Below are positions 32,869-56,640 of a DNA stretch of 64,000 bases, one piece after another (position 1 is the stretch's first letter; each line of letters starts with the position of its first letter). The notes under the pieces were generated by a model. It searched no databases. It saw nothing but the letters and a program-made list of their open reading frames with translations, and was not told where the DNA came from. This stretch comes from Myxococcales bacterium. GTDB taxonomy: Bacteria > Myxococcota > Polyangia > Nannocystales > Nannocystaceae. Made by a program: the position numbers and the translations under genes. Where the stretch lies: contig JAEUJW010000020.1 of assembly GCA_016793465.1 (NCBI GenBank), positions 1-64,000 of the forward strand, given 5' to 3'.

Positions 32869-33987
32869 GTGGACCTGCGCCGCGAACACGCGCAGCTGAA
32901 GCAGCTGCTCACCTCGGGGATCGACCTGATCACCCAGATGCCGGCGACGGCCGAGCACCTGCGCCGCGTGGTGCCGGCGTTCAGCCTGTCGCTGATACGC
33001 GTCGACGAGCGCTGCGCGCCGACCTCGCACTACAGCGAGTTCTTCGACGACCACAGCCACGCGCTGTTCGCCAGCAGCGGCCACGTGTTCTCGGCCCGCT
33101 CCGACGACCCCGCGGCGTTCGGCAACCTGCTGCGCAACCGTCGGGCGGTCGGCACGCTCGTCGACACCTCGCCGGCCTACGTGGCCGGCGCCACCTACCA
33201 GCACCTGTTCAAGCGCAACGGCATCCACCACACGCTCGACGCGGCGATCCGCCACGACGGGCGCCCGCTGGGGATCCTCGGCATCTTCCGCGAGGCGCGG
33301 GCCCCCGCGTTCACCCGCGCCGACGTCGCCCGGGTCTGCGAGCTCTACCCGCTGCTCGTGCACGCCTTCCTCGCGGAGCCGCTGCCGGCCGACCACGTCG
33401 AGTGTGACAGCGCGTTGATCGTCACCGCCGCCGACGGGGCGATCGAGTGGGCCTCGCCGGCCGCGCGGCGCTGGCTGGCGGACGCGGCCTTCGGGGTCGA
33501 GCGGGCGCACCTCACCGACCGCCACGTCCTGCCGTCCGCGTGCCGCCGGCTGTGCGCCGCGCTCGCCGCGGTCCAGGCCGGCGCCGGCGGGCCCCAGGAC
33601 GTGCCGAGCCTGACGCTGCCGGTGCCCGGCGGACGGCTGCGCCTGCGGGCCTACGGGCTGTCGTCGCGGTGCTCCGGCGAGGCGGCCACGCGCTGCGGGA
33701 TCCAGCTGAGCCTCGAGATGCACCGCGGGCTGCAGGTGCTGCGGGCGCTCGAGCAGGCGCCGCTCACCCCGCAGCAGCGGCGCATGGCCTACGCGTACTA
33801 CGAGGGCAAGCGCCCGCGGGAGATCGGCGCGCTCCTCGGGGTCAGCCCGAGCAGCTTCAAGACCTACCGCAAGGAGCTCTACGCCCGCCTCGGCGTGACG
33901 AGCGAGGCCGAGCTGCGCGACGCGCTGGTGGCCCTCGCGCGCTCGGCCACGTTCGACCTGCAGCGCCACCAGCCCCGCAGGGGGTGA
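32869..33987 (+). CDS. LuxR-type transcriptional regulator with N-terminal sensory domain
   Basis: 372 residues from a GTG. Residues ~1-175 look GAF-like (FSLSLIRVDERCAP, HDGRPLGILGIFREA). A PAS-like middle follows (VTAADGAIEWASPAARRWL). The C-terminal ~60 residues form a LuxR/GerE helix-turn-helix (LTPQQRRMAYAYYEGKRPRE, then GVSPSSFKTYRKELYARLGV). There is no receiver domain, so input is probably a ligand or redox signal. Divergent from the lipoprotein gene at 32711, a possible target. Confidence 0.8.
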   Translation: MDLRREHAQLKQLLTSGIDLITQMPATAEHLRRVVPAFSLSLIRVDERCAPTSHYSEFFDDHSHALFASSGHVFSARSDDPAAFGNLLRNRRAVGTLVDTSPAYVAGATYQHLFKRNGIHHTLDAAIRHDGRPLGILGIFREARAPAFTRADVARVCELYPLLVHAFLAEPLPADHVECDSALIVTAADGAIEWASPAARRWLADAAFGVERAHLTDRHVLPSACRRLCAALAAVQAGAGGPQDVPSLTLPVPGGRLRLRAYGLSSRCSGEAATRCGIQLSLEMHRGLQVLRALEQAPLTPQQRRMAYAYYEGKRPREIGALLGVSPSSFKTYRKELYARLGVTSEAELRDALVALARSATFDLQRHQPRRG

Positions 33988-34496: not shown

Positions 34497-35177
34497 ATGG
34501 ACTCGGCGAGCCCGGACGCCCTCAGGGTCACGCCAGAGCGGGTCCAGCGGATGATCGACGCGCTCGCGCTGATCGGCGTCGATCAGCACGACAGGGCGCT
34601 CGACCTGCTGCCCGAGCTGGCCGAGATGCGCGACGAGATCGACCTGCTCGAGTCGTGCGTCCGCGTGCTGATCGAGCAGGTCGCCGAGTCGCAGGCCGCG
34701 AACGACCGCTACGCACAGGCGCTCGAGGAGTCGCGGCAGCACCTCGCCGACAAGCTCGAGCTGATCCAGCGCCAGACGATCGCGCTCGCCGACCTGTCGA
34801 CGCCGATCATCGAGGTCTGGGACGGCACGCTGGTGCTGCCGATCATCGGCGCCATCGACGCCCCGCGGGCCGCGGCGATCGCCGCGACGCTGCTGCGCAG
34901 CATCACCGACCTGCGCGCGCGCCACGTGCTGCTCGACCTGACCGGCGTCGAGACCATCGACGCGGTGACCTTCGAACACCTCTCGCGGCTGGTCCGCGCG
35001 GCCGAGCTGCTCGGCGCGCGCTGCACCCTCACGGGGCTGAGTCCGGCCGTCGCCGCCGCGGTCGTCGGGCTGGGACTCGACCACTCCGTCCTCCACACCC
35101 GCGCGACCCTGAAAGAGGGGCTGCGCGACGTCGTCGCCCGCCAGCAGCCCCCGTCCGACCCGCCGAGACGCCGATGA
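34497..35177 (+). CDS. STAS-domain regulator (RsbR-like, short N-terminus)
   Basis: 226 residues. Residues 1-100 are helical (DRALDLLPELAEMRDEIDLL, then a coiled coil to ADLSTPIIEVWDG), with no PAS or GAF domain. Residues ~105-215 form the STAS domain (LVLPIIGAIDAPRAAAIAAT, LLDLTGVETIDAVTF, LGARCTLTGLSPAVAAAVVG). The phosphorylatable Thr context DLTGVETID is kept. The stop overlaps the next start (ATGA), so it is coupled to a second small STAS-like protein, which may be its partner as RsbS is to RsbR. Confidence 0.8.
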   Translation: MDSASPDALRVTPERVQRMIDALALIGVDQHDRALDLLPELAEMRDEIDLLESCVRVLIEQVAESQAANDRYAQALEESRQHLADKLELIQRQTIALADLSTPIIEVWDGTLVLPIIGAIDAPRAAAIAATLLRSITDLRARHVLLDLTGVETIDAVTFEHLSRLVRAAELLGARCTLTGLSPAVAAAVVGLGLDHSVLHTRATLKEGLRDVVARQQPPSDPPRRR

Positions 35178-41402: not shown

Positions 41403-42305
41403 TCAGGCGGACAGGCCGGCGACGAACGCGATGCCGTCCTGCAGGCTGCTGCAGGTGTGGATCCCCGAGAGGTCGACGCCCAGCGTGACGAGGGTCTGGG
41501 CGATCGCGGGGCGGATGCCGGTCAGGACCACGGTCGCGCCGAGCAGGCGGACGGCCTGCGCGGCGCGGATCAGGGCCTCGGCGCCGAACGTGTCGATGCT
41601 GTGCACGCCGGTGATGTCGACGATGGCGAAGCGGGCGCGCCGGGTCGCCACGCCGTCGAGCAGGCCTTGAAGGATCTGGGCCGCGCGCTCGGGGTCGATG
41701 TCGCCGACGAGCGGCAGGGCGATCACGTCGCCGGCGATCGGCACGATCGGCGTCGCCAGCTCGCGCAGGGCGGTGGTCTGGCGGCGCAGGATCTCGTTCT
41801 GGGCCTGGAGCTGGGCCACCAGGCGCTCGCGCTCGTGCTCGGCGGCGTGGCGGGCGGCGGCGGCGGCGTGCTCCTCGGTCGCGTCGAGGATCACGCCCTC
41901 CCAGCGCGTGCTGCCGTCGGCCTCGCGCGTCGGGAAGGAGAACGCGTGCAGCCATTTGACGACCCCGCGCTCGCCGAGGATGATGCGGCCCTCCCAGCGG
42001 AACGGGGTCAGCTCCGCGGCGGAGCGGGCGACGGCGGCCTGGAACCCGGGCAGGTCCTCGGGGTGGATGACCTCGAGGCTGTAGCGGATGTCGGCCAGCA
42101 GCTGCGCCGGGGTCAGGCCGTAGATCTGCTCGCAGCCCTTGCTGACGAAGGTGAAGCGGGCCTCGCCGGTCGCCGACAGCGTCCACTGGTAGAGCATCAC
42201 CGGTACGCAATCGACGATGGCGCGCAGCAGGACGAGCTCACGCTCGGCGTCGGCGAGCCGGAGCGACAGGGCCGCGTTGTCGGTGGGGACGATCGGTTCG
42301 GTCAT
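41403..42305 (-). CDS. PAS-STAS regulator (RsbR-type)
   Basis: 300 residues. A PAS domain (~25-150: LVLLRAIVDCVPVMLYQW, FVSKGCEQIYGLTPAQLL, VIHPEDLPGF, then a PAC-like WLHAFSFPTREADGS) is followed by a coiled linker (~155-185) and a STAS domain (VIALPLVGDIDPERAAQILQ, IVDITGVHSIDTFGAEALI). The RsbR phosphosite context DITGVHSIDT is kept. It is divergent from the bilin operon, sharing the 283-base intergenic region, so a regulatory link is possible but unproven. Confidence 0.82.
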   Translation of the reverse strand: MTEPIVPTDNAALSLRLADAERELVLLRAIVDCVPVMLYQWTLSATGEARFTFVSKGCEQIYGLTPAQLLADIRYSLEVIHPEDLPGFQAAVARSAAELTPFRWEGRIILGERGVVKWLHAFSFPTREADGSTRWEGVILDATEEHAAAAARHAAEHERERLVAQLQAQNEILRRQTTALRELATPIVPIAGDVIALPLVGDIDPERAAQILQGLLDGVATRRARFAIVDITGVHSIDTFGAEALIRAAQAVRLLGATVVLTGIRPAIAQTLVTLGVDLSGIHTCSSLQDGIAFVAGLSA

Positions 42306-42493
42306 CGCAGCCGGCGATCGTGGCTCAGCACGACCCGCGGGGGAAGAGGGTCGCCGGGGCGGGACAGGCGCCGGCGCGGCGCTCGATCCGATGCTCGTGC
42401 TCGACGAGGTCGCGGTCGCCGATCCGGGGGCCAGGCGGTCCCGCGCGTGGACGCCTGCTCCCTCCCGGGATGCTTACCGAGCGTCATGTAGTG

Positions 42494-42521
42494 GGAACTC
42501 CGGCCCGAAGAACAGTTGTGA
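42494..42521 (+). promoter_or_regulatory. Candidate ECF-sigma-type promoter of the bilin operon
   Basis: GGAACT (42494-42499), a 16-base spacer and TTGTGA (42516-42521) resemble a sigmaE-class promoter (GGAACTT-N16-TCTGA). It would start transcription near 42528, about 60 bases before the first gene of the bilin cluster. The stretch 42511-42545 is clearly AT-richer than its surroundings. Confidence 0.35.
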
Positions 42522-42588
42522 GACAAAGTTTGTACGGTGCAGGTCCGAACGGTTGCGCCGATGGCCCGGCCGATGCTAGGGATTCGCC

Positions 42589-43074
42589 ATGAAACGGGTC
42601 ATCATCGCCGGCGCTGATGAACCTGTGGACCTCCGGACAAACCTTCGGCTGGTCGACGCTATTTCGACCTCCGGAACCCATTTGCTGCAGGCCTGCGGCG
42701 GCAAGGGGCTGTGCGCCACCTGTCACGTATATATCCGTGCGGGGGCCGAGCAGCTCTCGCCGGTCACGCCGCGCGAGCGGTCGTCGCTGCGGATGCTCAA
42801 CGAGCGCCGCGACAACTCGCGGCTCGCGTGTCAGGCGAAGGTCGTCGGCGACGGCGTCGAGGTCGCCTTGCCGAGCGGTCGCTATCTGACCGCCTCGACC
42901 GACCTCGAGGCGCTGGTCGGGCGCCGCGCCGACGAACGCATCCTCCACCCGGTCGACGGCCGCGTCCTCATCGAGCCCGGAAAGATCATCACCCGCAGCC
43001 GCATTCGTGAGCTCGCGGCCGTCGACGTCGATCTCGCGGAGGTCAAGTCGCACTCCCTCACGCTCCCCCACTGA
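42589..43074 (+). CDS. 2Fe-2S ferredoxin-like protein of the bilin cluster
   Basis: 161 residues. The plant-type 2Fe-2S ligand set is complete: Cys36, Cys42, Cys45 (ACGGKGLCATC) and Cys81 (RLACQ). A ~75-residue C-terminal extension (ASTDLEALVGRRADERIL, VLIEPGKIITRSRIRELA) is not found in ordinary ferredoxins. It opens the eight-gene bilin operon. Published BBAG clusters include an iron-sulfur protein. Here it is the obvious electron donor for the heme oxygenase and the PcyA-like reductase, both of which normally take electrons from ferredoxin. Cytoplasmic. Confidence 0.88.
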   Translation: MKRVIIAGADEPVDLRTNLRLVDAISTSGTHLLQACGGKGLCATCHVYIRAGAEQLSPVTPRERSSLRMLNERRDNSRLACQAKVVGDGVEVALPSGRYLTASTDLEALVGRRADERILHPVDGRVLIEPGKIITRSRIRELAAVDVDLAEVKSHSLTLPH

Positions 43075-43109
43075 TCACGGCGTCGTCGCCGGATCGCCCG
43101 AATGTCCGT

Positions 43110-43871
43110 ATGGATTCTTTAATTGGCCGCATTCGCAAGCTCTGGAACGACCTGGTGCGCCTGCTCCGGGGCGAGCGACCCGCCCTGGCCGCGCCCCGCG
43201 AGGGCGGTCCGCCCGCGGCGACCCCCGCCACGCCCGCGGCCTCCGTCGCCGCGGCGCATGCGTCGGCGGCACGTGCGGCGGCCTCCGTCGTCGCGGCGCC
43301 CGCGGCCTCCGTCGCCGCGGCGCCCGCGGCCTCCGTCGCCGCGGCGCGTGCGACGACCCCCACCGCGCCCGCGGCGGCTGTCGTCGTCGCCACGCCCGCA
43401 GCGCCTGCGTCCGCAGCGCGTGCGGCGGCCTCCGAGGCCGCGGCGCCGGCGGCCTCCGTCGCCGCGGCGCCCGCGACCGTGGACGTCCCGGCCGCTGCCG
43501 TGTCGGCGGCCGACCTCGCCGCCACGCCCGCGGCCGCGGTCGCCGCCGAGTCCGTGCCGGACCTCGCGCTCGCGTCGATGCGGGCCGCGGTCGCGGCCGC
43601 CGATCCCACAAACGACCCGCATCCGGAGATGTCCCTCGGGACAGGCGCGGCGATCCGTGAGTCGGCGCTGACAGTGACGGTCCGTAGCTTCTTCAGCCAG
43701 GTCGCCGCGTCTGCGCCGGGCGGCCTCGACGTCGACTTCGCGGCCTGGGAGACCGCGAAGGTCGAGCGCTTCTTCCTCGCCCTCCACACCCTGCCCGGCC
43801 GGCGGCGCGGGCCGGCGCTGACCGAGCGCGCCGGCATCGACGACGCGTTCGCCGACTTCCAGTGGGACTGA
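43110..43871 (+). CDS. Ala/Val/Pro-rich linker protein within the bilin operon
   Basis: 253 residues. The N-terminus is a basic amphipathic helix (MDSLIGRIRKLWNDLVRLLR) that could touch a membrane or a partner. Residues ~25-150 are low-complexity Ala/Val/Ser/Pro (APAASVAA repeats). A ~95-residue C-terminal part looks folded (VTVRSFFSQVAASAPGGL, FAAWETAKVERFFLALHTLP) and ends FADFQWD. A helix-linker-domain design suits a scaffold or tether. I know of no family match. A copy of the dispersed TGTCCC palindrome lies inside the gene (43630-43643), reading through as part of EMSLGTGA. Confidence 0.6.
   Translation: MDSLIGRIRKLWNDLVRLLRGERPALAAPREGGPPAATPATPAASVAAAHASAARAAASVVAAPAASVAAAPAASVAAARATTPTAPAAAVVVATPAAPASAARAAASEAAAPAASVAAAPATVDVPAAAVSAADLAATPAAAVAAESVPDLALASMRAAVAAADPTNDPHPEMSLGTGAAIRESALTVTVRSFFSQVAASAPGGLDVDFAAWETAKVERFFLALHTLPGRRRGPALTERAGIDDAFADFQWD
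43630..43643. repeat. Copy 2 of dispersed palindrome, inside a coding region
   Basis: TGTCCCTCGGGACA, identical to the copy at 13980-13993. Confidence 0.6.
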
Positions 43872-43890
43872 CCCGCACGAGACAACGACC

Positions 43891-44391
43891 ATGAACAACG
43901 AGATCCAAGCCATGCTGACGGCCTGCGAGGGCCGCTATCCGACCCGCGCGGAGCAGGCGATGCTGCGCGAGTGGGCCTCCCGGCTCGACGCGCGCCTGGC
44001 CGCGCTCGAGGAGATCCGCGCCCGCGAGGACGCGATCGTCGGCGCGACCGTCGACGACGTGCTGCGCCGCTACCCGGAGCTCGAGAAGCGGGTCAAGAAC
44101 GCCCGCCAGTGCTGCGTGCGCGACGAGACCCTGGTGCTCCGCTACTGCGCGCTCGCGCTGGTGCGGAGCGACCCGCGCTGGCTCGAGGACTCGCTGCTGA
44201 CCTGGATGTCGACGATCCTGCGCGGCGTCGGCTTCGCCGGCCCGTTCATCGCCGACGCCTACCAGACGATGACCCGCACCGCCGCCCGCGAGCTCTCGCC
44301 GTCGACGATGGAGCTGCTGCGGCCCTACCTCGAGCAGTGCGTCGCGACCCTCGCCGGCAAGCGCGAGGCCGCCGGAGGCGCGCCGACATGA
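43891..44391 (+). CDS. Phycobiliprotein-like globin (bilin-biosynthesis-associated globin, BBAG type)
   Basis: 166 residues, about the size of an allophycocyanin subunit. The helical pattern matches the phycobilisome globin fold. At residues 74-85 the stretch CCVRDETLVLRY aligns with the phycobiliprotein helix around Cys84 (A-C-I-R-D-x-x-Y-Y-L-R-Y), so the bilin-attachment Cys (Cys75, with Cys74 beside it), Arg77 and Asp78 are all present. Downstream, SDPRWLEDSLLTWMSTILRG corresponds to the AGD-ld...l-G-l..-Y segment. No photosynthesis gene is near, and the surrounding heme oxygenase, bilin reductase, 2Fe-2S and V4R genes match published BBAG clusters. It probably binds the bilin made by its neighbours. 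It overlaps the next gene by 4 bases. Confidence 0.83.
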   Translation: MNNEIQAMLTACEGRYPTRAEQAMLREWASRLDARLAALEEIRAREDAIVGATVDDVLRRYPELEKRVKNARQCCVRDETLVLRYCALALVRSDPRWLEDSLLTWMSTILRGVGFAGPFIADAYQTMTRTAARELSPSTMELLRPYLEQCVATLAGKREAAGGAPT

Positions 44392-45020
44392 GCGACCAGC
44401 GATCGCTGCAGTACTTCCGCCGCCCCGACTTCCCGCGCCTCGACGTCCAGGCCGGCGTGCTGCGCAGCCGCGGCGGCACGCGGTTCGTCGCGGTCACCGA
44501 GGACTTCCTGCGCGGGTTCGTGGCCGCCTGCGAGCACGAGGCCGGGCCCGCGGCGGCGCTGGTGCTGCGCCGCTGCGGCGAGTTCTTCGGCGCCCGCCTG
44601 GCCCGCCGCTTCGAGGCCGAGCTGGGGCAGTTCGCCGGGCAGTCGCTGCGCGACCGCACGATGGCCGAGTTCGACGAGCTGCTGCGCGACCTGTGGCGCG
44701 GCTGCGGCTACGGCGACCTGCAGGTCGACTGGACCCGCGGCGCGCGCGGCTTCCTGGCGATCCGCCTGGTCGACAGCCCGCTGCAGGACATCGGCCCGAG
44801 CGGGCACGTCGGCGACGACATCTTCTGCGGCCTGCTCGCCGGGTTCTTCAATGAGTTCTGCGACGCCGACGTCCGCTGCGTGCAGACCGGCGACGCCCGC
44901 CTCGGCGACCGCGACGGCACGACCTTCATCGTCGCCCCCTTCGAGATCGCCAAGCGCGTCGAGGGCATGCGCGCCAACAAGGTCCGCCACAGCGAGATCG
45001 TCGAGACCATCGACGCCTGA
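44388..45020 (+). CDS. V4R-domain protein 1 of the bilin cluster
   Basis: 210 residues, cytoplasmic. It has the V4R (4-vinyl-reductase/bacteriochlorophyll J-type) architecture: VTEDFLRGFVAACEHEAG, LRRCGEFFGARLA, then a second half GLLAGFFNEFCDADVRCVQT and GDRDGTTFIVAPFEIAKRV. V4R domains bind small hydrophobic ligands, and relatives act in tetrapyrrole metabolism. Published BBAG clusters contain two V4R proteins, as here. Several V4R cysteines expected near the C-terminus (as in the paralogue's EEFCKF) are replaced (GTTFIV), so the two may not be equivalent. Starts in a 4-base overlap with the globin gene. Confidence 0.78.
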   Translation: MSDQRSLQYFRRPDFPRLDVQAGVLRSRGGTRFVAVTEDFLRGFVAACEHEAGPAAALVLRRCGEFFGARLARRFEAELGQFAGQSLRDRTMAEFDELLRDLWRGCGYGDLQVDWTRGARGFLAIRLVDSPLQDIGPSGHVGDDIFCGLLAGFFNEFCDADVRCVQTGDARLGDRDGTTFIVAPFEIAKRVEGMRANKVRHSEIVETIDA

Positions 45021-45027
45021 CGTCGCC

Positions 45028-46485
45028 ATGGACCCCGTCCCCGAGTCCGTGCTCGACCGCTACTCCGTCGGCAACCGCCTCGCCGCCGGCGCCGCCGGCA
45101 CCGTCGTCGCCGCCGTCGACACGACCACCGGCGAGCCCGTGGTCGTCAAGTTCTTCGACGGCGCCGACGACAACTTCACCGCCTGGGTCGCCGAGGTCCG
45201 TCTCGCCATGCGCCTGCGCCACGCCAACATCCCGCGCTGCCTCGACGCCGGCCACGACGCCGGCTGGGGGCTGTCCGTCCTCGTGTTCGAGCGCGCGGCC
45301 GGCGGCTCGCTGCGCCGCGCCCTCGCCTCGGGCCGCCGCTTCGCCGCCGACGAGACCCGCCGCGTGCTCGCCGACGTCGCCGCGGCCCTCGCCCACGCGC
45401 ACGGCCACGGCGTGATCCACCGCGACGTCAAGCCGGAGAACATCCTCTCGCGGACCGCCCTCGGCGAGCCGCCGTGGCTGCTGACCGACTTCGGCGCCGG
45501 CCGGTTCTTGCCCCGCGGCGCCGTCGCCCGCGCGCCCGCGGGGTCGTTCGCGTACATGGCCCCGGAGGTGATGCTCGGCGGGGCCACCGCGGAGAGCGAC
45601 CAGTACTCGCTCGGTGTGGTCGGCGCCGAGCTGTGGGGCGGGGCGGCGCTCGACCGCCGCGCGCGCTCGCAGTTCCGCCTGGACCACGTCGACGGCGACG
45701 CGCTCGCCCGGGCGATCGTCCGCCTCCTCGACCCCGACCCGGCCCGCCGCTTCCCGACCGTCGAGGCGGCCGGCCTCGCGCTCGCCGGCGCGGGCCGCTT
45801 CGACGTCACCGCGATCCGCGACGGCAGCACGTTCATGCTCGTCGACGACGCCGTGTTCGTCCGCCGCCCCGACGACCCGGCGCTCGCGCAGGTCGGCCAC
45901 GTCGCCGGCGCGCGGCGCTTCGTCAACGCCTGGGGCGACGCCCACGCGATCGTGCTCGCCGACCGGCTCGTCGCCTTCGACCCCTACGGCCGCACCCTCG
46001 GCCCCGCGCCCGACGCCCCGGTGTTCGTCGCCGAGGCCAGGCCCCACGCCGCCTGGACCCTCGAGCCCGCCGGCGTGGCGCTGCGCGCGGCCCACCGCGC
46101 GGTCACCCGCGTCGACGCCGCGCTGCCCGCCGACTGGCGCGCCGGCGGCCGCCCGCTCGGCGTCGGCGTCGGCCCCGGCCGCGCGCTGCTCGGCGTGCGC
46201 GGCAGCGCCGTGGTCGCCGTCGCGTCGGTCGCCGACGGCGCGCCGCGCCTGACCCTCGAGGGCCTGCCCGGCCCGCTCCACGACGTGCGCCGCGTCGGCG
46301 GCCACGCCGTGATCCTCTGCGGCGACGCCGACCGCGGCGCCGCGCTCGCGCTCGACGCCGGCCTGCGGCTGCTCGCCGCCGTCGAGCGCCCGGTCGACAC
46401 CCTGCGGGTCGACCTCATCCGCGACACCCCGAGCGTGACGACGCTGGCGCCCGACCTCGTGCGCGTCGTCGAGGAGAAGCCGTGA
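45028..46485 (+). CDS. Soluble Ser/Thr protein kinase with beta-rich C-terminus in the bilin operon
   Basis: 485 residues. The kinase domain (about 10-260) has a Gly-rich loop (NRLAAGAAGTVV), the VVVKFF lysine, HRDVKPEN catalytic loop, TDFGAG, and APE motif SFAYMAPEV, so it should be active. No membrane helix is present, unlike the kinase at 7104. Residues ~265-485 are a run of short beta repeats (AIVLADRLVAFDPYGRTLG, RALLGVRGSAVVAVASVADG) consistent with a propeller-like sensor. It sits seven bases after V4R 1 and overlaps the reductase gene by GTGA. A kinase is not part of the published core set that I recall, so it may couple bilin status to phosphorylation (inference). Confidence 0.85.
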   Translation: MDPVPESVLDRYSVGNRLAAGAAGTVVAAVDTTTGEPVVVKFFDGADDNFTAWVAEVRLAMRLRHANIPRCLDAGHDAGWGLSVLVFERAAGGSLRRALASGRRFAADETRRVLADVAAALAHAHGHGVIHRDVKPENILSRTALGEPPWLLTDFGAGRFLPRGAVARAPAGSFAYMAPEVMLGGATAESDQYSLGVVGAELWGGAALDRRARSQFRLDHVDGDALARAIVRLLDPDPARRFPTVEAAGLALAGAGRFDVTAIRDGSTFMLVDDAVFVRRPDDPALAQVGHVAGARRFVNAWGDAHAIVLADRLVAFDPYGRTLGPAPDAPVFVAEARPHAAWTLEPAGVALRAAHRAVTRVDAALPADWRAGGRPLGVGVGPGRALLGVRGSAVVAVASVADGAPRLTLEGLPGPLHDVRRVGGHAVILCGDADRGAALALDAGLRLLAAVERPVDTLRVDLIRDTPSVTTLAPDLVRVVEEKP

Positions 46486-47189
46486 CCGCCGACGACCCGA
46501 GCATCGACCAGGGCCTCCGCGGCGCGCGCGAGGCCGCCGAGGCGCTCGCCGCGGCGCTCGACCTGGCGCCCCAGGACGTGCCCGCCGAGCTGCGCCGCCT
46601 GCCCGGCGACCTGCGCGGCGCGCCGATCGCCCTGCACACCCGCCGGTTCGCCGGCCCCCGCTGGGCCCTGACCCTCGCCGAGATCACCGCCGCCGACGGC
46701 GCGCTGATCGCCTTCACCGCCATCGGCCTGCCCGCCGGCGCGCCAGCGCCGATCCTCGGCGTCGACCTCGTCGCCGTGCAGGGCGCGCTCAGCCTCGTCG
46801 CCGTCGACCTCGCGCCGACCGACGACGCGGCCTGGTCCGCCGCCGAGCCGGCGCTCGTGCGACTCCACCAGGCGACCGCCGAGCTGGTGGTCCCGCGCCG
46901 CCGCCCCGAGTTCGCCGACGAGGTGTTCTCGCCGCGGGCCCTCATCGCCGGCGCCCGCCGCGGGCATGAGGCCGCCGCGCTGGCGGCCGTGGCCGCGTTC
47001 CTCCGCGAGGTCGCGCCGATCGTCGCGGCCGCCACCGCGACGCCGACCGTGCACCACGCGGCCGACGAGCGCCGCCGCCGCTGGTGCCTCGCCGAGCGCC
47101 GCAACCGCCGCGAGCACGACGCGCTCGCGCGCATGTTCGGCGCCGGACCGGCGTCGTCCTACAGCGAGTTCCTGTTCCCGTCCCTGTGA
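46482..47189 (+). CDS. PcyA-like ferredoxin-dependent bilin reductase (pre-PcyA type)
   Basis: 235 residues from a GTG. Residues ~90-112 (PILGVDLVAVQ, then VAVDLAP) match the PcyA family segment P-x-F-G-x-D-L-V-x-x-x-G ... A-D-L-S-P, placing Asp95 where the catalytic Asp105 of PcyA lies. The C-terminus (RRRWCLAERRNRREHDALAR, then MFGAGPASSYSEFLF) matches the family's Q-x-x-N-D-K-T-R-x-x-L-x-x-x-F-G ... Y-x-x-x-L-F tail. The usual PcyA His88 has no obvious equivalent (LIAFTAI), consistent with a divergent ancestor-like enzyme whose product may not be phycocyanobilin. Expected reaction: ferredoxin-driven reduction of biliverdin from the heme oxygenase two genes downstream. Confidence 0.75.
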   Translation: MTADDPSIDQGLRGAREAAEALAAALDLAPQDVPAELRRLPGDLRGAPIALHTRRFAGPRWALTLAEITAADGALIAFTAIGLPAGAPAPILGVDLVAVQGALSLVAVDLAPTDDAAWSAAEPALVRLHQATAELVVPRRRPEFADEVFSPRALIAGARRGHEAAALAAVAAFLREVAPIVAAATATPTVHHAADERRRRWCLAERRNRREHDALARMFGAGPASSYSEFLFPSL

Positions 47190-47226
47190 TCCACCGATGT
47201 CACCCACGCCCCCAGGAGGTCCGAGC

Positions 47227-47892
47227 ATGTCCACGGGTACACCCGCCCTGCCGACGGTCGAGGTCGCCGGCCAGTCCGTCGAGCTCCACAACTACTACGA
47301 GCCGCGCAAGTTCCTCCGCCGCACCCAGGAGGGCCGCATCCTCGACACCTACAACCAGCGCTGCATGCTCGTCAGCGAGGACTTCATCGTCGGCTTCCAG
47401 AGCGCGCTCGAGGAGGAGGTCGGCGACGCCGCCGGCGACATCATGTACCGCTGCGGCTTCGAGTGGGGCCGCCGCGACATCGACCGGTTCGTCGCCCGCT
47501 TCCCCGAGGAGTTCGGGCGCCCGCTGTCCGACTTCCGCTTCGGCCAGCTGCTCGAGACGTGGTGGTGGCCGCTGCAGGTCACCGGCTGGGGCGCGTGGCG
47601 CTACGACCTGCAGCACCGCAAGGAGGGCCTGATCTTCGTCGACCTCCACGACTCCGCGGTCGCGCGCAGCGTCGGCAACATCGGCAAGGTGGTCTGCCAC
47701 TACTACGCCGGCATGTTCGCGGCCGTGTTCTCGCGCCTGGCCCAGCGCGAGCTCAGCTCGATCGAGATCCAGTGCTACTCGATGGGCGAGGAGTTCTGCA
47801 AGTTCCTGATCGGCTCGGCGAAGCGGATCCAGGCGGCCCAGTTCTGGGTCGCCGAGGGCGCCCGCGCCAGCGAGATCATCAGCCGCCTGTGA
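47227..47892 (+). CDS. V4R-domain protein 2 of the bilin cluster
   Basis: 221 residues with an excellent AGGAGGT ribosome site. V4R pattern: LVSEDFIVGFQSALEEEVGD, IMYRCGFEWGRRDIDRFV, then CHYYAGMFAAVFSRLAQREL and IEIQCYSMGEEFCKFLIGSA. Three cysteines (YRCG, IQCY, EFCKF) are kept that differ in V4R 1, possibly for metal or ligand binding. The WWWPLQVTGWGAWRYDLQ stretch is strikingly aromatic and could stack on a bilin or porphyrin. Between the reductase (37-base gap) and the heme oxygenase (5-base gap). Confidence 0.83.
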   Translation: MSTGTPALPTVEVAGQSVELHNYYEPRKFLRRTQEGRILDTYNQRCMLVSEDFIVGFQSALEEEVGDAAGDIMYRCGFEWGRRDIDRFVARFPEEFGRPLSDFRFGQLLETWWWPLQVTGWGAWRYDLQHRKEGLIFVDLHDSAVARSVGNIGKVVCHYYAGMFAAVFSRLAQRELSSIEIQCYSMGEEFCKFLIGSAKRIQAAQFWVAEGARASEIISRL

Positions 47893-47897
47893 GCCCC

Positions 47898-48539
47898 ATG
47901 CACGCCGCACACGCCGTCCACACGCCGACCCCGACGCTGTCCGCCCGCCTGCGCGACGAGACCCGCGAGGCCCACCGCGCCGCCGAGCGCGGGCGCCTCG
48001 TCCGCGACCTCGTGCGCGGCGACCTCGACCGCGACCGCTACGCGGGCCTGCTCGCCGCGCTCTACCGCGTGCACCTCGCCCTCGAGGCCGGCCTCGAGGC
48101 CCACCGCCGCCACCCGTGCGTCGCCCCGCTGCACTGGCCGGCGCTGGCCCGCAGCCCGGCGCTGGCCCGCGACCTCGCCGCCCTCGCCGGTCCGGGCTGG
48201 CAGGGCCGCGTGGTCGTCGACGCCGCCGCCGACGCGTACGTCGCCCGCCTGGTCGCCCTCGGCCGCGAGGCCCCGCCGCTGCTGCTGGCGCACGCCTACG
48301 TGCTGTACCTCGGCGACCTCTCGGGCGGGCAGATCCTGCGCGCCTGCGTGGCCCGCTTCGCCCCCGAGGCGCTGGCCCGCTTCGACTTCCCCGGCCTCGA
48401 CGTCTCCGCGGCGCGCCTCGAGTTCCGCGAGCGCCTCGACGCGGCCCCGCTCGGACCGCCGCTGGTCACCGCGGTGATCGCCGAGGCCGGCCGCGCGTTC
48501 GAGCTGCACGCCGGCCTGGCCGACGCGCTCGTCGCGTGA
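47898..48539 (+). CDS. Biliverdin-producing heme oxygenase
   Basis: 213 residues, typical for bacterial heme oxygenases. The proximal heme ligand is His26 in RDETREAHRAAER. The distal-helix signature YVLYLGDLSGGQILRA carries the Gly-rich bend over the heme. The enzyme opens heme to biliverdin, CO and Fe2+, using electrons from ferredoxin. It is last in the operon and supplies the substrate of the PcyA-like reductase. Its 3' end, including the stop, is imperfectly duplicated just downstream (48576-48609). Confidence 0.9.
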   Translation: MHAAHAVHTPTPTLSARLRDETREAHRAAERGRLVRDLVRGDLDRDRYAGLLAALYRVHLALEAGLEAHRRHPCVAPLHWPALARSPALARDLAALAGPGWQGRVVVDAAADAYVARLVALGREAPPLLLAHAYVLYLGDLSGGQILRACVARFAPEALARFDFPGLDVSAARLEFRERLDAAPLGPPLVTAVIAEAGRAFELHAGLADALVA

Positions 48540-48626: not shown

Positions 48627-50027
48627 TCAGCCGAGCCCGGGCACGCCGCCGGCGCCGACGCCGAGGCGCTGGGCCTCGCGGACCGCGCTGAGGACCGCGC
48701 CGTGGACGGTGCCGAAGTTCGTCCGCGACGTCGCCTCGCCGGCGAACAGCAGGCGGTCGCCGACCGGCGCGGCCAGGGCGTCGAAGTCGTCGAGGGTCTG
48801 GCCGAGCGCCGGGAAGCTGTACGAGCCGCGGCTGTAGGGGTCGTCGCGCCAGCGGGTCACGTGGGCGGCGACCGGCGGCGGCACGGCCACGCCGAGCGCC
48901 GCGGCGAGCACGTCCCGCGCGCCGGCGATCAGGGCCGCGTCGTCGAGCGCGTCGAGGGCCTCGCGGGCCCGCGCGCCGCCGTGGAGGAGCACGAGCGTGG
49001 GGGCGCCGGCCGCCGCGCTGACGTCGACGATCAGCGGGAACTCGCCGCGGGTCGCGCCCGCGTGCAGCCACGCGGCGTCGGGCGTGTCGGGCCAGAACGC
49101 CGCGTCCCAGCGCAGCACGACCTTCTCGAGGCTGCCCATCTCGAGCCGCGCGATCGCCTCGCGCTTGGCCGCCGGCAGCGCCGGCGCGAAGGTGATGCCC
49201 CCGGCCTGCAGCACCCCGAGCGGCACGGTGACGATCACCCGGTCGGCGCGCAGCACCTCGCCGCCGGCGAGCTCGACCCGCGCCGCGTCGCCGGCGAGCT
49301 CGACCCGCGTCACCGGGCGCGCGAGGCGGATGTCGAGGCCCTCGGCCAGCGGCGCCAGCAGCGAGCGGTAGCCGCCGACGACCACGTGGTCGTCGTAGCC
49401 GTAGAACTCGTCCTCGTCGAAGATCGCCAGCGAGGTGCGGGCGGTCGGGCCGCCGTAGTCGACCTCGAGCGCGTACTGCTCGAGGATCAGGCGGGCGTAC
49501 CGCTCGGCGCGCGGGTCGAGGGCGAGCCCCGCCAGGTGCGCGTCGATCGCCGCCTGCATGCTCGCCTGCTCGCCGAGCTCGGCCTGCAGCGACGGCAGCG
49601 CCGCCAGCAGCCCCTCCTCGCGCGCCAGCGCGGCCGCCAGCTCGTCGTCGCCGGCGAACCGGCCCTCGGCGGCGTCCCACAGCGCGACCGGCTCGTAGGC
49701 GTGCGGGCGGGTCGCGACCCCGTAGCCGTCGGCCATCGCCGCGACCGGGTTGCCGCTGCGCCCGTGGATCCACGCCGCGCCGACGTCGACCCGCGCGCCG
49801 GCCAGCTCGACGGTGTCGATGCGCCCGCCGATCCGCTCGCGCGCCTCGACCACCACGACCGCGATGCCGTCGGCCCGCAGCAGGCGCGCGGCCACCAGCC
49901 CGGCGACGCCGGCCCCGACGATCACCACGCTGCGCGTCGGCCCGGGCACGACCGGCGGCGCCTCGGCGCGGCAGGCGAGGCCCACCAGCGCCCCGAGGGC
50001 CCCGAGCAGCGGACGACGCGGCAGCAC
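48627..50027 (-). CDS. FAD-dependent amine oxidase (monoamine/polyamine oxidase type)
   Basis: 466 residues from a GTG. The N-terminus (RRPLLGALGALVGLAC) can be read as a signal peptide with lipobox, so it may be exported as a lipoprotein. The FAD-binding motif VVIVGAGVAGLVAARLLRAD is at ~34-53, then ERIGGRID, the substrate region VDVGAAWIHG, and the C-terminal FAD contact LLFAGEATSRTNFGTVHGA. Such enzymes oxidise polyamines or other amines, giving aldehyde, ammonia or amine, and H2O2. It is convergent with the bilin operon and probably unrelated to it. The catalase at 54451 could remove its peroxide. Confidence 0.87.
   Translation of the reverse strand: MLPRRPLLGALGALVGLACRAEAPPVVPGPTRSVVIVGAGVAGLVAARLLRADGIAVVVVEARERIGGRIDTVELAGARVDVGAAWIHGRSGNPVAAMADGYGVATRPHAYEPVALWDAAEGRFAGDDELAAALAREEGLLAALPSLQAELGEQASMQAAIDAHLAGLALDPRAERYARLILEQYALEVDYGGPTARTSLAIFDEDEFYGYDDHVVVGGYRSLLAPLAEGLDIRLARPVTRVELAGDAARVELAGGEVLRADRVIVTVPLGVLQAGGITFAPALPAAKREAIARLEMGSLEKVVLRWDAAFWPDTPDAAWLHAGATRGEFPLIVDVSAAAGAPTLVLLHGGARAREALDALDDAALIAGARDVLAAALGVAVPPPVAAHVTRWRDDPYSRGSYSFPALGQTLDDFDALAAPVGDRLLFAGEATSRTNFGTVHGAVLSAVREAQRLGVGAGGVPGLG

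Positions 50028-54450: not shown

Positions 54451-56640
<2,190 letters not shown>

What the first reader, a model, noticed from the sequence alone, without database searches (positions are those of the whole stretch)
42589..48539. Complete bilin operon with phycobiliprotein-like globin in a non-photosynthetic (myxobacterial-type) genome
Eight tightly spaced plus-strand genes (two 4-base overlaps, no gap over 37 bases) encode a 2Fe-2S protein, an Ala-rich protein, a phycobiliprotein-like globin with C-C-x-R-D at the bilin-site helix, V4R 1, a kinase, a PcyA-like reductase, V4R 2 and heme oxygenase. Seen: motifs and order. Established: BBAG/pre-PcyA clusters with two V4R proteins and an iron-sulfur protein are reported in non-photosynthetic bacteria as ancestors of phycobilisome chemistry. 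Inferred: this locus makes and binds a reduced bilin. The bilin's use here is unknown; no phytochrome or photosystem gene is in the window.
Basis: partly seen in the sequence, partly recalled or inferred. Interest (0 to 1): 0.95.

Follow-up and report, generated by a model that had tools for sequence, protein, structure and literature searches.

The report
Bilin-globin operon with dedicated kinase
This stretch of a myxobacterium-like genome carries a full gene set that is predicted to turn heme into a coloured bilin and load it onto a relative of the cyanobacterial light-antenna proteins, and because a protein kinase gene sits in all 16 such gene sets compared here, the bilin likely serves a signalling circuit rather than photosynthesis.

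Summary
Profiles, trees and models identify a pre-3-type bilin reductase (Thr at PcyA His88, Asp at Asp105), a phycobiliprotein-fold BBAG with C75-V-R-D, a 2Fe-2S protein, two V4R-type proteins and a heme oxygenase. This is the cluster published by Rockwell et al. 2023 (PMC10151467), so the core is a new member of a known kind. Two genes that the paper's main text does not name prove to be conserved parts. (1) The kinase: all 16 BBAG clusters compared (window included) hold a Ser/Thr kinase, directly behind V4R1 in 10; the pre-3 copies form a clade of their own, far from their genomes' other kinases. (2) The Ala-rich protein: a short family with aromatic motifs, in the same place (V4R2-x-BBAG-V4R1) as a small gene of cyanobacterial clusters. 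In Synechocystis the operon's kinase SpkG is reported to be needed for phosphorylation of the operon's own 2Fe-2S protein. Best reading, untested: a bilin-making module wired to a kinase. A tempting claim of a catalytic Glu76 was tested and dropped.

The parts
42589..43074 (+). 2Fe-2S protein (161 aa), C36-x5-C42-x2-C45 ... C81; kin of cluster Fe-S proteins incl. cyanobacterial ones
   Evidence: Pfam Fer2 1.1e-08; Cys positions; alignment with 13 rows from other clusters, two of them the same gene; Acaryochloris copy 3.5e-47
43110..43871 (+). Ala-rich small-motif protein (253 aa): N-terminal amphipathic helix, Ala/Pro-rich linker, conserved C-terminal ~65 aa (VRSFF...W...VERFFLAL...FADFQWD)
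   Evidence: No Pfam hit; profile of the C-terminal part finds the gene between V4R2 and BBAG in other clusters; helix moment
43891..44391 (+). BBAG, phycobiliprotein-fold globin (166 aa) with C75-V-R-D78
   Evidence: PF00502 2.3e-21; AlphaFold2 pLDDT 91.2; Foldseek best match C-phycocyanin 9.5e-06; R77 and D78 in 40 of 40, C75 in 34 of 40 aligned rows
44388..45020 (+). V4R-type protein 1 (210 aa), overlaps BBAG by 4 bases
   Evidence: No Pfam hit; relatives in the other clusters and similarity to V4R2
45028..46485 (+). Dedicated Ser/Thr kinase Kin1 (485 aa): K41, HRD131, DFG154; own C-terminal region 270-485 without Pfam hit
   Evidence: PF00069 1.4e-32; ortholog test; tree; motifs
46482..47189 (+). 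Pre-3-type ferredoxin-dependent bilin reductase (235 aa, GTG start): T79 = PcyA His88, D95 = Asp105
47227..47892 (+). V4R-type protein 2 (221 aa), XylR_N-like + V4R
   Evidence: PF02830 4e-16, XylR_N 0.0012 below cut-off; Acaryochloris copy 2.3e-66
47898..48539 (+). Heme oxygenase (213 aa), TREAHRAAE and DLSGGQ motifs
   Evidence: PF01126 8.2e-47; motifs
42306..42588 (.). Intergenic stretch shared with the divergent PAS-STAS gene (41403-42305, -); presumed promoter region of the operon (inferred)
   Evidence: Position only; no promoter test made

Best explanation
This operon is a pre-3-type BBAG gene cluster with a dedicated Ser/Thr kinase, and it is predicted to turn heme into a reduced bilin, load the bilin onto the phycobiliprotein-like globin, and likely couple the state of that globin-V4R complex to the kinase, whose likeliest target is the cluster's own 2Fe-2S protein. 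Shown here: the genes, their families, and the recurrence of the kinase and of the small protein in other clusters. Inferred from named families: heme oxygenase makes biliverdin; the 2Fe-2S protein, as the operon's ferredoxin, feeds electrons to heme oxygenase and reductase; the reductase makes phytochromobilin and/or phycoerythrobilin, as the one pre-3 enzyme tested in print does; BBAG binds it, through C75 or without a covalent bond. Inferred from position and precedent, untested: V4R1/V4R2 act as sensor subunits, the Ala-rich protein ties the complex together (and perhaps to the membrane) by its helix and its aromatic motifs, and the kinase phosphorylates the 2Fe-2S protein, so that bilin making and signalling are linked in a loop.
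For: Families; the window's reductase lies in a set of 71 rows, 70 with Thr at this site (SH-aLRT 96), six PcyA apart (99) (quick method). Kinase: present in 16 of 16 BBAG clusters compared (window; G001 x2, G002, G103, G106, G125, G241, G207, G259, G262; G104, G114; G341 x2, G492), directly behind V4R1 in 10 of 16. Against 10 genomes the window's kinase domain scores 1.7e-63 to 2.2e-78 (47-54% identity) on the six pre-3 cluster copies there, and at best 1.9e-26 on any other match (100-151 matches a genome). In the tree the pre-3 cluster kinases form one clade (20 rows, 99), those of the other clusters another (7 rows, 98), with none of 26 background kinases inside. Lys, HRD and DFG intact in 9 of 9 pre-3 first kinases incl. 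the window's. Chance of a kinase in any 10 kb of these genomes 0.15-0.29, of one as the next gene about 0.01-0.02. Metagenome contigs: of 14 BBAG hits whose longest contig is 8 kb or more, 10 share that exact length with a contig of a kinase hit. Precedent: in Synechocystis spkG is the last gene of slr0144-slr0152, and in its mutant Fd5 was no longer phosphorylated, which the review calls indirect evidence (passage of PMC11863333); Fd5 is Slr0148, the adrenodoxin-like 2Fe-2S protein of that operon (passage of PMC4284462). Biochemistry of the pre-3 pair MBL9008304/MBL9008307: PMC10151467.
Against: Two cyanobacterial copies of the cluster on Acaryochloris plasmids have no Ser/Thr kinase within the 18-kb stretches read (a histidine kinase gene lies upstream of one), so the kinase is not needed everywhere. 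SpkG's sequence was not at hand, so its kinship with Kin1 is untested, and its kinase activity is unverified. The cluster kinases fall into at least two clades that are not sisters in the tree; those of the non-pre-3 clusters score against the window's kinase only like background (9e-22 to 6e-20 for G259, G241, G262), and for G259, G262 and G207 the cluster kinase is not the best match of its own genome even to a kinase of its own clade. The genomes hold 100 or more kinases each, and the pre-3 clusters share ancestry, so 16 of 16 is not 16 independent events. BBAGs tested in print were photoinactive. The site's Cys is missing in 10 of 15 BBAGs of the window and compared loci (G341 and G492 not looked at) and in 6 of 40 aligned rows, so covalent loading is not general. 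No wet data.
Confidence: 0.45

Rival explanations
1. A plain bilin-making and bilin-storing operon (heme turnover, antioxidant pigment); the kinase is a neighbour with a job of its own.
For: Heme oxygenase, reductase and globin suffice for a bilin protein; these genomes hold very many kinases; two Acaryochloris clusters lack a Ser/Thr kinase.
Against: In pre-3 clusters the kinase is a dedicated ortholog that scores about 40 or more orders of magnitude better than other kinases of the same genomes, stands behind V4R1 in 10 of 16 clusters and is found in all 16; V4R pair and small protein are not needed for storage.
Confidence: 0.25
2. A light sensor: the bilin-BBAG-V4R complex senses light and the kinase passes it on, for example to buoyancy or motility.
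For: In G001 the second cluster encloses gas vesicle genes (GvpA type x3, GvpK, GvpG, GvpL/F) and a LuxR-type response regulator between V4R1 and the Fer2-kinase part. Gas vesicle genes occur over the cut-off in 4 of 8 pre-3 genomes and 14 of the other 309 of that class (Fisher p 0.0004).
Against: BBAGs tested in print did not photoconvert and fluoresce little (PMC10151467). Only one locus has the genes side by side; kinship and habitat may explain the rest; for reductase-bearing genomes as a whole the link is weak (4 of 27 against 14 of 290, p 0.056); no gas vesicle gene among the 25 window genes profiled.
Confidence: 0.2
3. A light-harvesting antenna of an unknown phototroph.
For: Phycobiliprotein fold and CxRD motif.
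Against: Far below every NCBIfam antenna cut-off listed (best 29.1 bits against 225); no linker or photosystem family among the genes profiled; low fluorescence of BBAGs in print.
Confidence: 0.03

Closest known systems
Pre-3 / BBAG-3 clusters of Myxococcales (Rockwell, Martin and Lagarias 2023, PMC10151467)
   Same: 2Fe-2S protein, two V4R proteins, BBAG with CxRD, pre-3 reductase (Thr at His88, Asp at Asp105), heme oxygenase.
   Different: V4R2 lies between reductase and heme oxygenase here, against Fer2-V4R2-x-BBAG-V4R1 in the pre-3 relatives read. The kinase and the small-motif protein are not named in the main text ('kinase' occurs there only in a reference title; slr0150-slr0152 are mentioned only as neighbours of the cyanobacterial cluster; figure drawings and SI not seen).
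Synechocystis slr0144-slr0152 operon with SpkG and Fd5
   Same: 2Fe-2S protein, V4R proteins, BBAG (Slr0149) and a Ser/Thr kinase in one operon.
   Different: No reductase or heme oxygenase in that cluster; kinase at the far end; SpkG sequence not compared.
Acaryochloris marina plasmid clusters (L158, L159)
   Same: Order V4R2 - small VxxFFxxxxW protein - BBAG-like - V4R1 - Fer2 - BBAG, collinear with V4R2 - small protein - BBAG - V4R1 of the myxobacterial clusters.
   Different: No Ser/Thr kinase, reductase or heme oxygenase recognised in the stretches read.
Phycobiliproteins (phycocyanin, allophycocyanin)
   Same: Fold (Foldseek best 9.5e-06, TM about 0.7) and CxRD site.
   Different: About 18% identity; no antenna subunit model reaches its cut-off.

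Membership tests
Pre-3 bilin reductase | Match to Fe_bilin_red and FDBR fold | tested here: met
Pre-3 bilin reductase | Thr at PcyA His88, Asp at Asp105 | tested here: met
   T79 and D95; both in 43 of 43 rows of alignment A1
Pre-3 bilin reductase | No Glu at PcyA Glu76 | tested here: inconclusive
   E67 aligns with Glu76 but A66 does; strand pairing of the model (61-70 with 75-84) puts A66, not E67, on the face of T79; A66 in 42 of 43, position 67 variable. Absence of Glu76 is likelier
Pre-3 bilin reductase | Clustered with Fe-S protein, two V4R proteins, BBAG and HO | tested here: met
Pre-3 bilin reductase | Reduces biliverdin to phytochromobilin/phycoerythrobilin | not testable with these tools
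   needs enzyme assay
BBAG (BBAG-1/BBAG-3 lineage) | Phycobilisome-family globin in a cluster with a pre-PcyA gene | tested here: met
   PF00502 2.3e-21; reductase three genes downstream
BBAG (BBAG-1/BBAG-3 lineage) | CxRD site (in some members) | tested here: met
   C75-V-R-D78
BBAG (BBAG-1/BBAG-3 lineage) | Binds bilin | not testable with these tools
   needs co-expression
Light-harvesting phycobiliprotein | Passes an antenna subunit model | tested here: not met
   best 29.1 bits, cut-off 225
V4R proteins | V4R domain in both | tested here: inconclusive
   V4R2 PF02830 4e-16; V4R1 none in Pfam, yet matches V4R2 at 2e-14
Hanks-type Ser/Thr kinase | Kinase domain with Lys, HRD, DFG | tested here: met
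   PF00069 1.4e-32; K41, HRD131, DFG154
SpkG ortholog | Common descent with Slr0152 | not tested
   no Slr0152 sequence was reachable
Small VxxFF motif protein of cyanobacterial clusters | Sequence homology of the window's Ala-rich protein | tested here: inconclusive
   profile of the myxobacterial copies finds no cyanobacterial hit; shared place and motif

The most novel reading that the evidence does not exclude
BBAG clusters are an old kinase-linked bilin sensing module, made of bilin-globin, V4R pair, a multi-motif scaffold protein, ferredoxin and Ser/Thr kinase, that existed before phycobilisomes; SpkG phosphorylating Fd5 in Synechocystis is its surviving circuit, and the light-harvesting phycobiliproteins are sisters of a signalling protein.
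Probability: 0.2. Interest if true: 0.85.

Novelty: new variant of a known kind. Interest (0 to 1): 0.6.

Why it matters
What BBAGs do is stated to be unknown in the paper that named them, and that paper set aside the genes next to the cyanobacterial cluster for want of evidence that they are conserved. A kinase found in each of the 16 clusters compared gives such evidence from the myxobacterial side and makes the question testable: which cluster protein is the substrate, and does bilin loading change it. It also adds a conserved small protein family for which Pfam gave no hit.

Tried and rejected
Glu76. The first alignments put Glu on the PcyA Glu76 column in the window and 17 of 61 homologs, against the printed statement that pre-PcyA enzymes lack it. 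A wider alignment put A66 there and the model's hairpin agrees, while position 67 varies freely. Dropped; my own rule of 12 residues before Thr also mis-scored rows with longer hairpins, so its E76 group is not used.

Loss of the reductase together with loss of the BBAG Cys in G104. PF05996 found no reductase in G104, but my own profile found one behind its heme oxygenase. Dropped; that call also shows Cys-less BBAGs in clusters with a reductase (G103, G125, G104, G259, G262).

Kinship of the window's Ala-rich protein with the cyanobacterial small gene by profile: no hit; kept only as shared place and motif. The motif pattern and the helix segments were chosen after seeing the sequences, so those shuffle counts are post hoc. 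No such gene was recognised in G241, G207, G259, G262; in G125 the contig ends at BBAG.

Phytochrome as user of the bilin: PHY domain in 1 of 12 genomes with a cluster or pre-3 reductase (G106). BBAG in plasmids and reductase in phages by tblastn: no match; the former missed the Acaryochloris BBAGs that V4R2 and Fer2 led to, so it was too blunt. PcyA-like scan of viral contigs: 11 stretches matched a pattern, none confirmed. The PAS-STAS neighbour as a conserved part: not tested by profile in the other clusters.

Rows dropped before the count of 16: six weak PF00502 places (G204, G314, G046, G315, G120, G203; E 4e-7 to 3e-4, long frames), four of them fetched and without Fer2 or V4R hits; and G003, whose contigs hold reductases and a second-type kinase but no BBAG match.

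Not in print, as far as seen: the listings (one search lists 20 of 47) show no paper on a kinase in BBAG clusters outside cyanobacteria; of these I read the Results and part of the Discussion of PMC10151467 and passages of PMC11863333, PMC3102658, PMC4284462 and PMC13193486. The library holds open papers only.
Full report
Observation. Spacing is 35, 19, -4, 7, -4, 37 and 5 bases. Pfam places six of them: Fer2, Phycobilisome, Pkinase, Fe_bilin_red, V4R, Heme_oxygenase. V4R1 has no Pfam hit but matches V4R2 at 2e-14. The Ala-rich gene has none either.

Bilin site. R77 and D78 stand in 40 of 40 aligned rows, C75 in 34 of 40. Among 15 BBAGs of the window and compared loci only five have the Cys (window, G114, G106, G002, G001 first copy; G341 and G492 not looked at). 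The pocket seems kept where the covalent anchor is not; inference.

The kinase. Loci around BBAG and reductase genes were taken from related genomes: 27 of 317 genomes of the class of G001 have PF05996 at E 1e-3 (23 over the cut-off), 17 of 317 have PF00502, and 7 of 377 genomes drawn from the phylum match the BBAG alignment, two of these (G341, G492) not met in the class. G001 and G002 are Myxococcales MAGs by record title; the tool gives no class name. With six weak PF00502 places left out, this gives 15 clusters plus the window. All 16 hold a Ser/Thr kinase gene. In 10 of 16 it is the gene behind V4R1; in G341 first copy a ParA-like gene (named by eye) lies between; in G001 second copy gas vesicle genes, a response regulator and a further Fer2 gene lie between; in G241 and G207 it follows the reductase; in G259 and G262 it lies between Fer2 and V4R2. 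Against ten genomes the window's kinase domain scores 1.7e-63 to 2.2e-78 on the six pre-3 cluster copies there and at best 1.9e-26 elsewhere; kinases of the non-pre-3 clusters score only like background. The tree has the pre-3 kinases in one clade (99), the seven of the other clusters in another (98), a second kinase of pre-3 clusters (tandem or fused) in a third (98), and all 26 background kinases outside (quick method). The background was picked by likeness to the window's kinase, so the test is fair for the first clade and weaker for the second; a second search shows the cluster kinase as its genome's best for G341, G241 and G492, not for G259 and G262, unclear for G207. In metagenomes, 10 of 14 BBAG hits on contigs of 8 kb or more, and 9 of 22 reductase hits, share the exact contig length with a kinase hit; this is circumstantial, as only the longest contig of each protein cluster is shown.

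Chance. Kinases stand every 29-63 kb in ten of these genomes; a 10-kb stretch holds one with probability 0.15-0.29 and the next gene is one with about 0.01-0.02. Shared descent makes the 16 clusters far fewer independent events; even so, several arrangements and two kinase clades, each with a kinase, are hard to get by chance.

The small protein. The last ~65 residues of the Ala-rich gene are conserved in the gene between V4R2 and BBAG: a profile built from the window, G002, G103, G106 and G001 first copy also finds G114 (2.3e-14) and, weakly, G001 second copy (1.6e-5). G104, G341 (both copies) and G492 have at the same place genes with repeats like SVRxRFxxVxW or VSAFF and, in G341 second copy, the same kind of tail. 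In two Acaryochloris plasmid clusters the gene at that place has three VxxF[FL]xxxxW repeats (0 of 5000 shuffles reach three; pattern chosen after the fact), though the profile itself does not find them. The N-terminus of the window's copy is an amphipathic helix (12 of 2000 shuffles as high; other copies from 1 to 364 of 2000). A tether or linker is the natural guess; untested.

Mechanism. Inferred chain: heme to biliverdin by heme oxygenase; reduction by the pre-3 enzyme to phytochromobilin/phycoerythrobilin, as for MBL9008304; loading on BBAG, which needs no lyase in print. What is new is the output: a dedicated kinase. The only functional precedent is SpkG, last gene of the Synechocystis operon; in its mutant Fd5 was no longer phosphorylated (passage in PMC11863333), Fd5 being Slr0148 of the same operon. 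I therefore propose that Kin1 acts on the operon's 2Fe-2S protein, under control of the BBAG-V4R complex. Against it: SpkG's activity is unverified, the Acaryochloris copies lack a Ser/Thr kinase, and orthology with SpkG is untested.

By the numbering alone, MBL9008304 (reductase) and MBL9008307 (BBAG) leave room for two genes between them, as in G002 (V4R1 and one fused kinase); this is a guess from accession numbers.

Light. The gas vesicle link (4 of 8 pre-3 genomes against 14 of 309 others) is suggestive but rests on one locus and related genomes, and tested BBAGs were photoinactive.

Noticed in passing
41403-42305 (-): PAS_3 + STAS protein (RsbR-like make-up), divergent from the operon with 283 bases between; a second STAS protein lies at 34497-35177 (+).
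   Followed up: partly
L046/L107 (G001 contig 58): A second BBAG cluster encloses gas vesicle genes (GvpA type x3, GvpK, GvpG, GvpL/F, an AAA ATPase) and a LuxR-type response regulator.
   Followed up: yes
L045 7647-8705 and L048 3088-4149: Extra bilin reductases of G001 and G003 each stand beside a 353-aa protein; the G001 one has a C-terminal STAS domain, the G003 one looks alike in its first residues.
   Followed up: no
L040, L038, L105, L002: Second kinases of pre-3 clusters look degenerate in some (GFG for DFG in G106 and G104, HGD for HRD in G103 and G104) and are fused to the first in G002.
   Followed up: partly
L135 10503-11282: A ParA/MinD-like ATPase gene (named by eye) sits between V4R1 and kinase in G341 first copy.
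   Followed up: no
L004: A pre-3-like reductase lies on a 10.7-kb contig filed under Klebsiella pneumoniae; probably a misplaced contig.
   Followed up: no
32869-33987 (+): GAF + LuxR-type regulator about 9 kb upstream of the operon; whether its GAF domain could bind a bilin was not examined.
   Followed up: no
54451-56640 (+) and 48627-50027 (-): A large catalase some 6 kb downstream, and a flavin amine oxidase gene directly behind the operon on the other strand.
   Followed up: no
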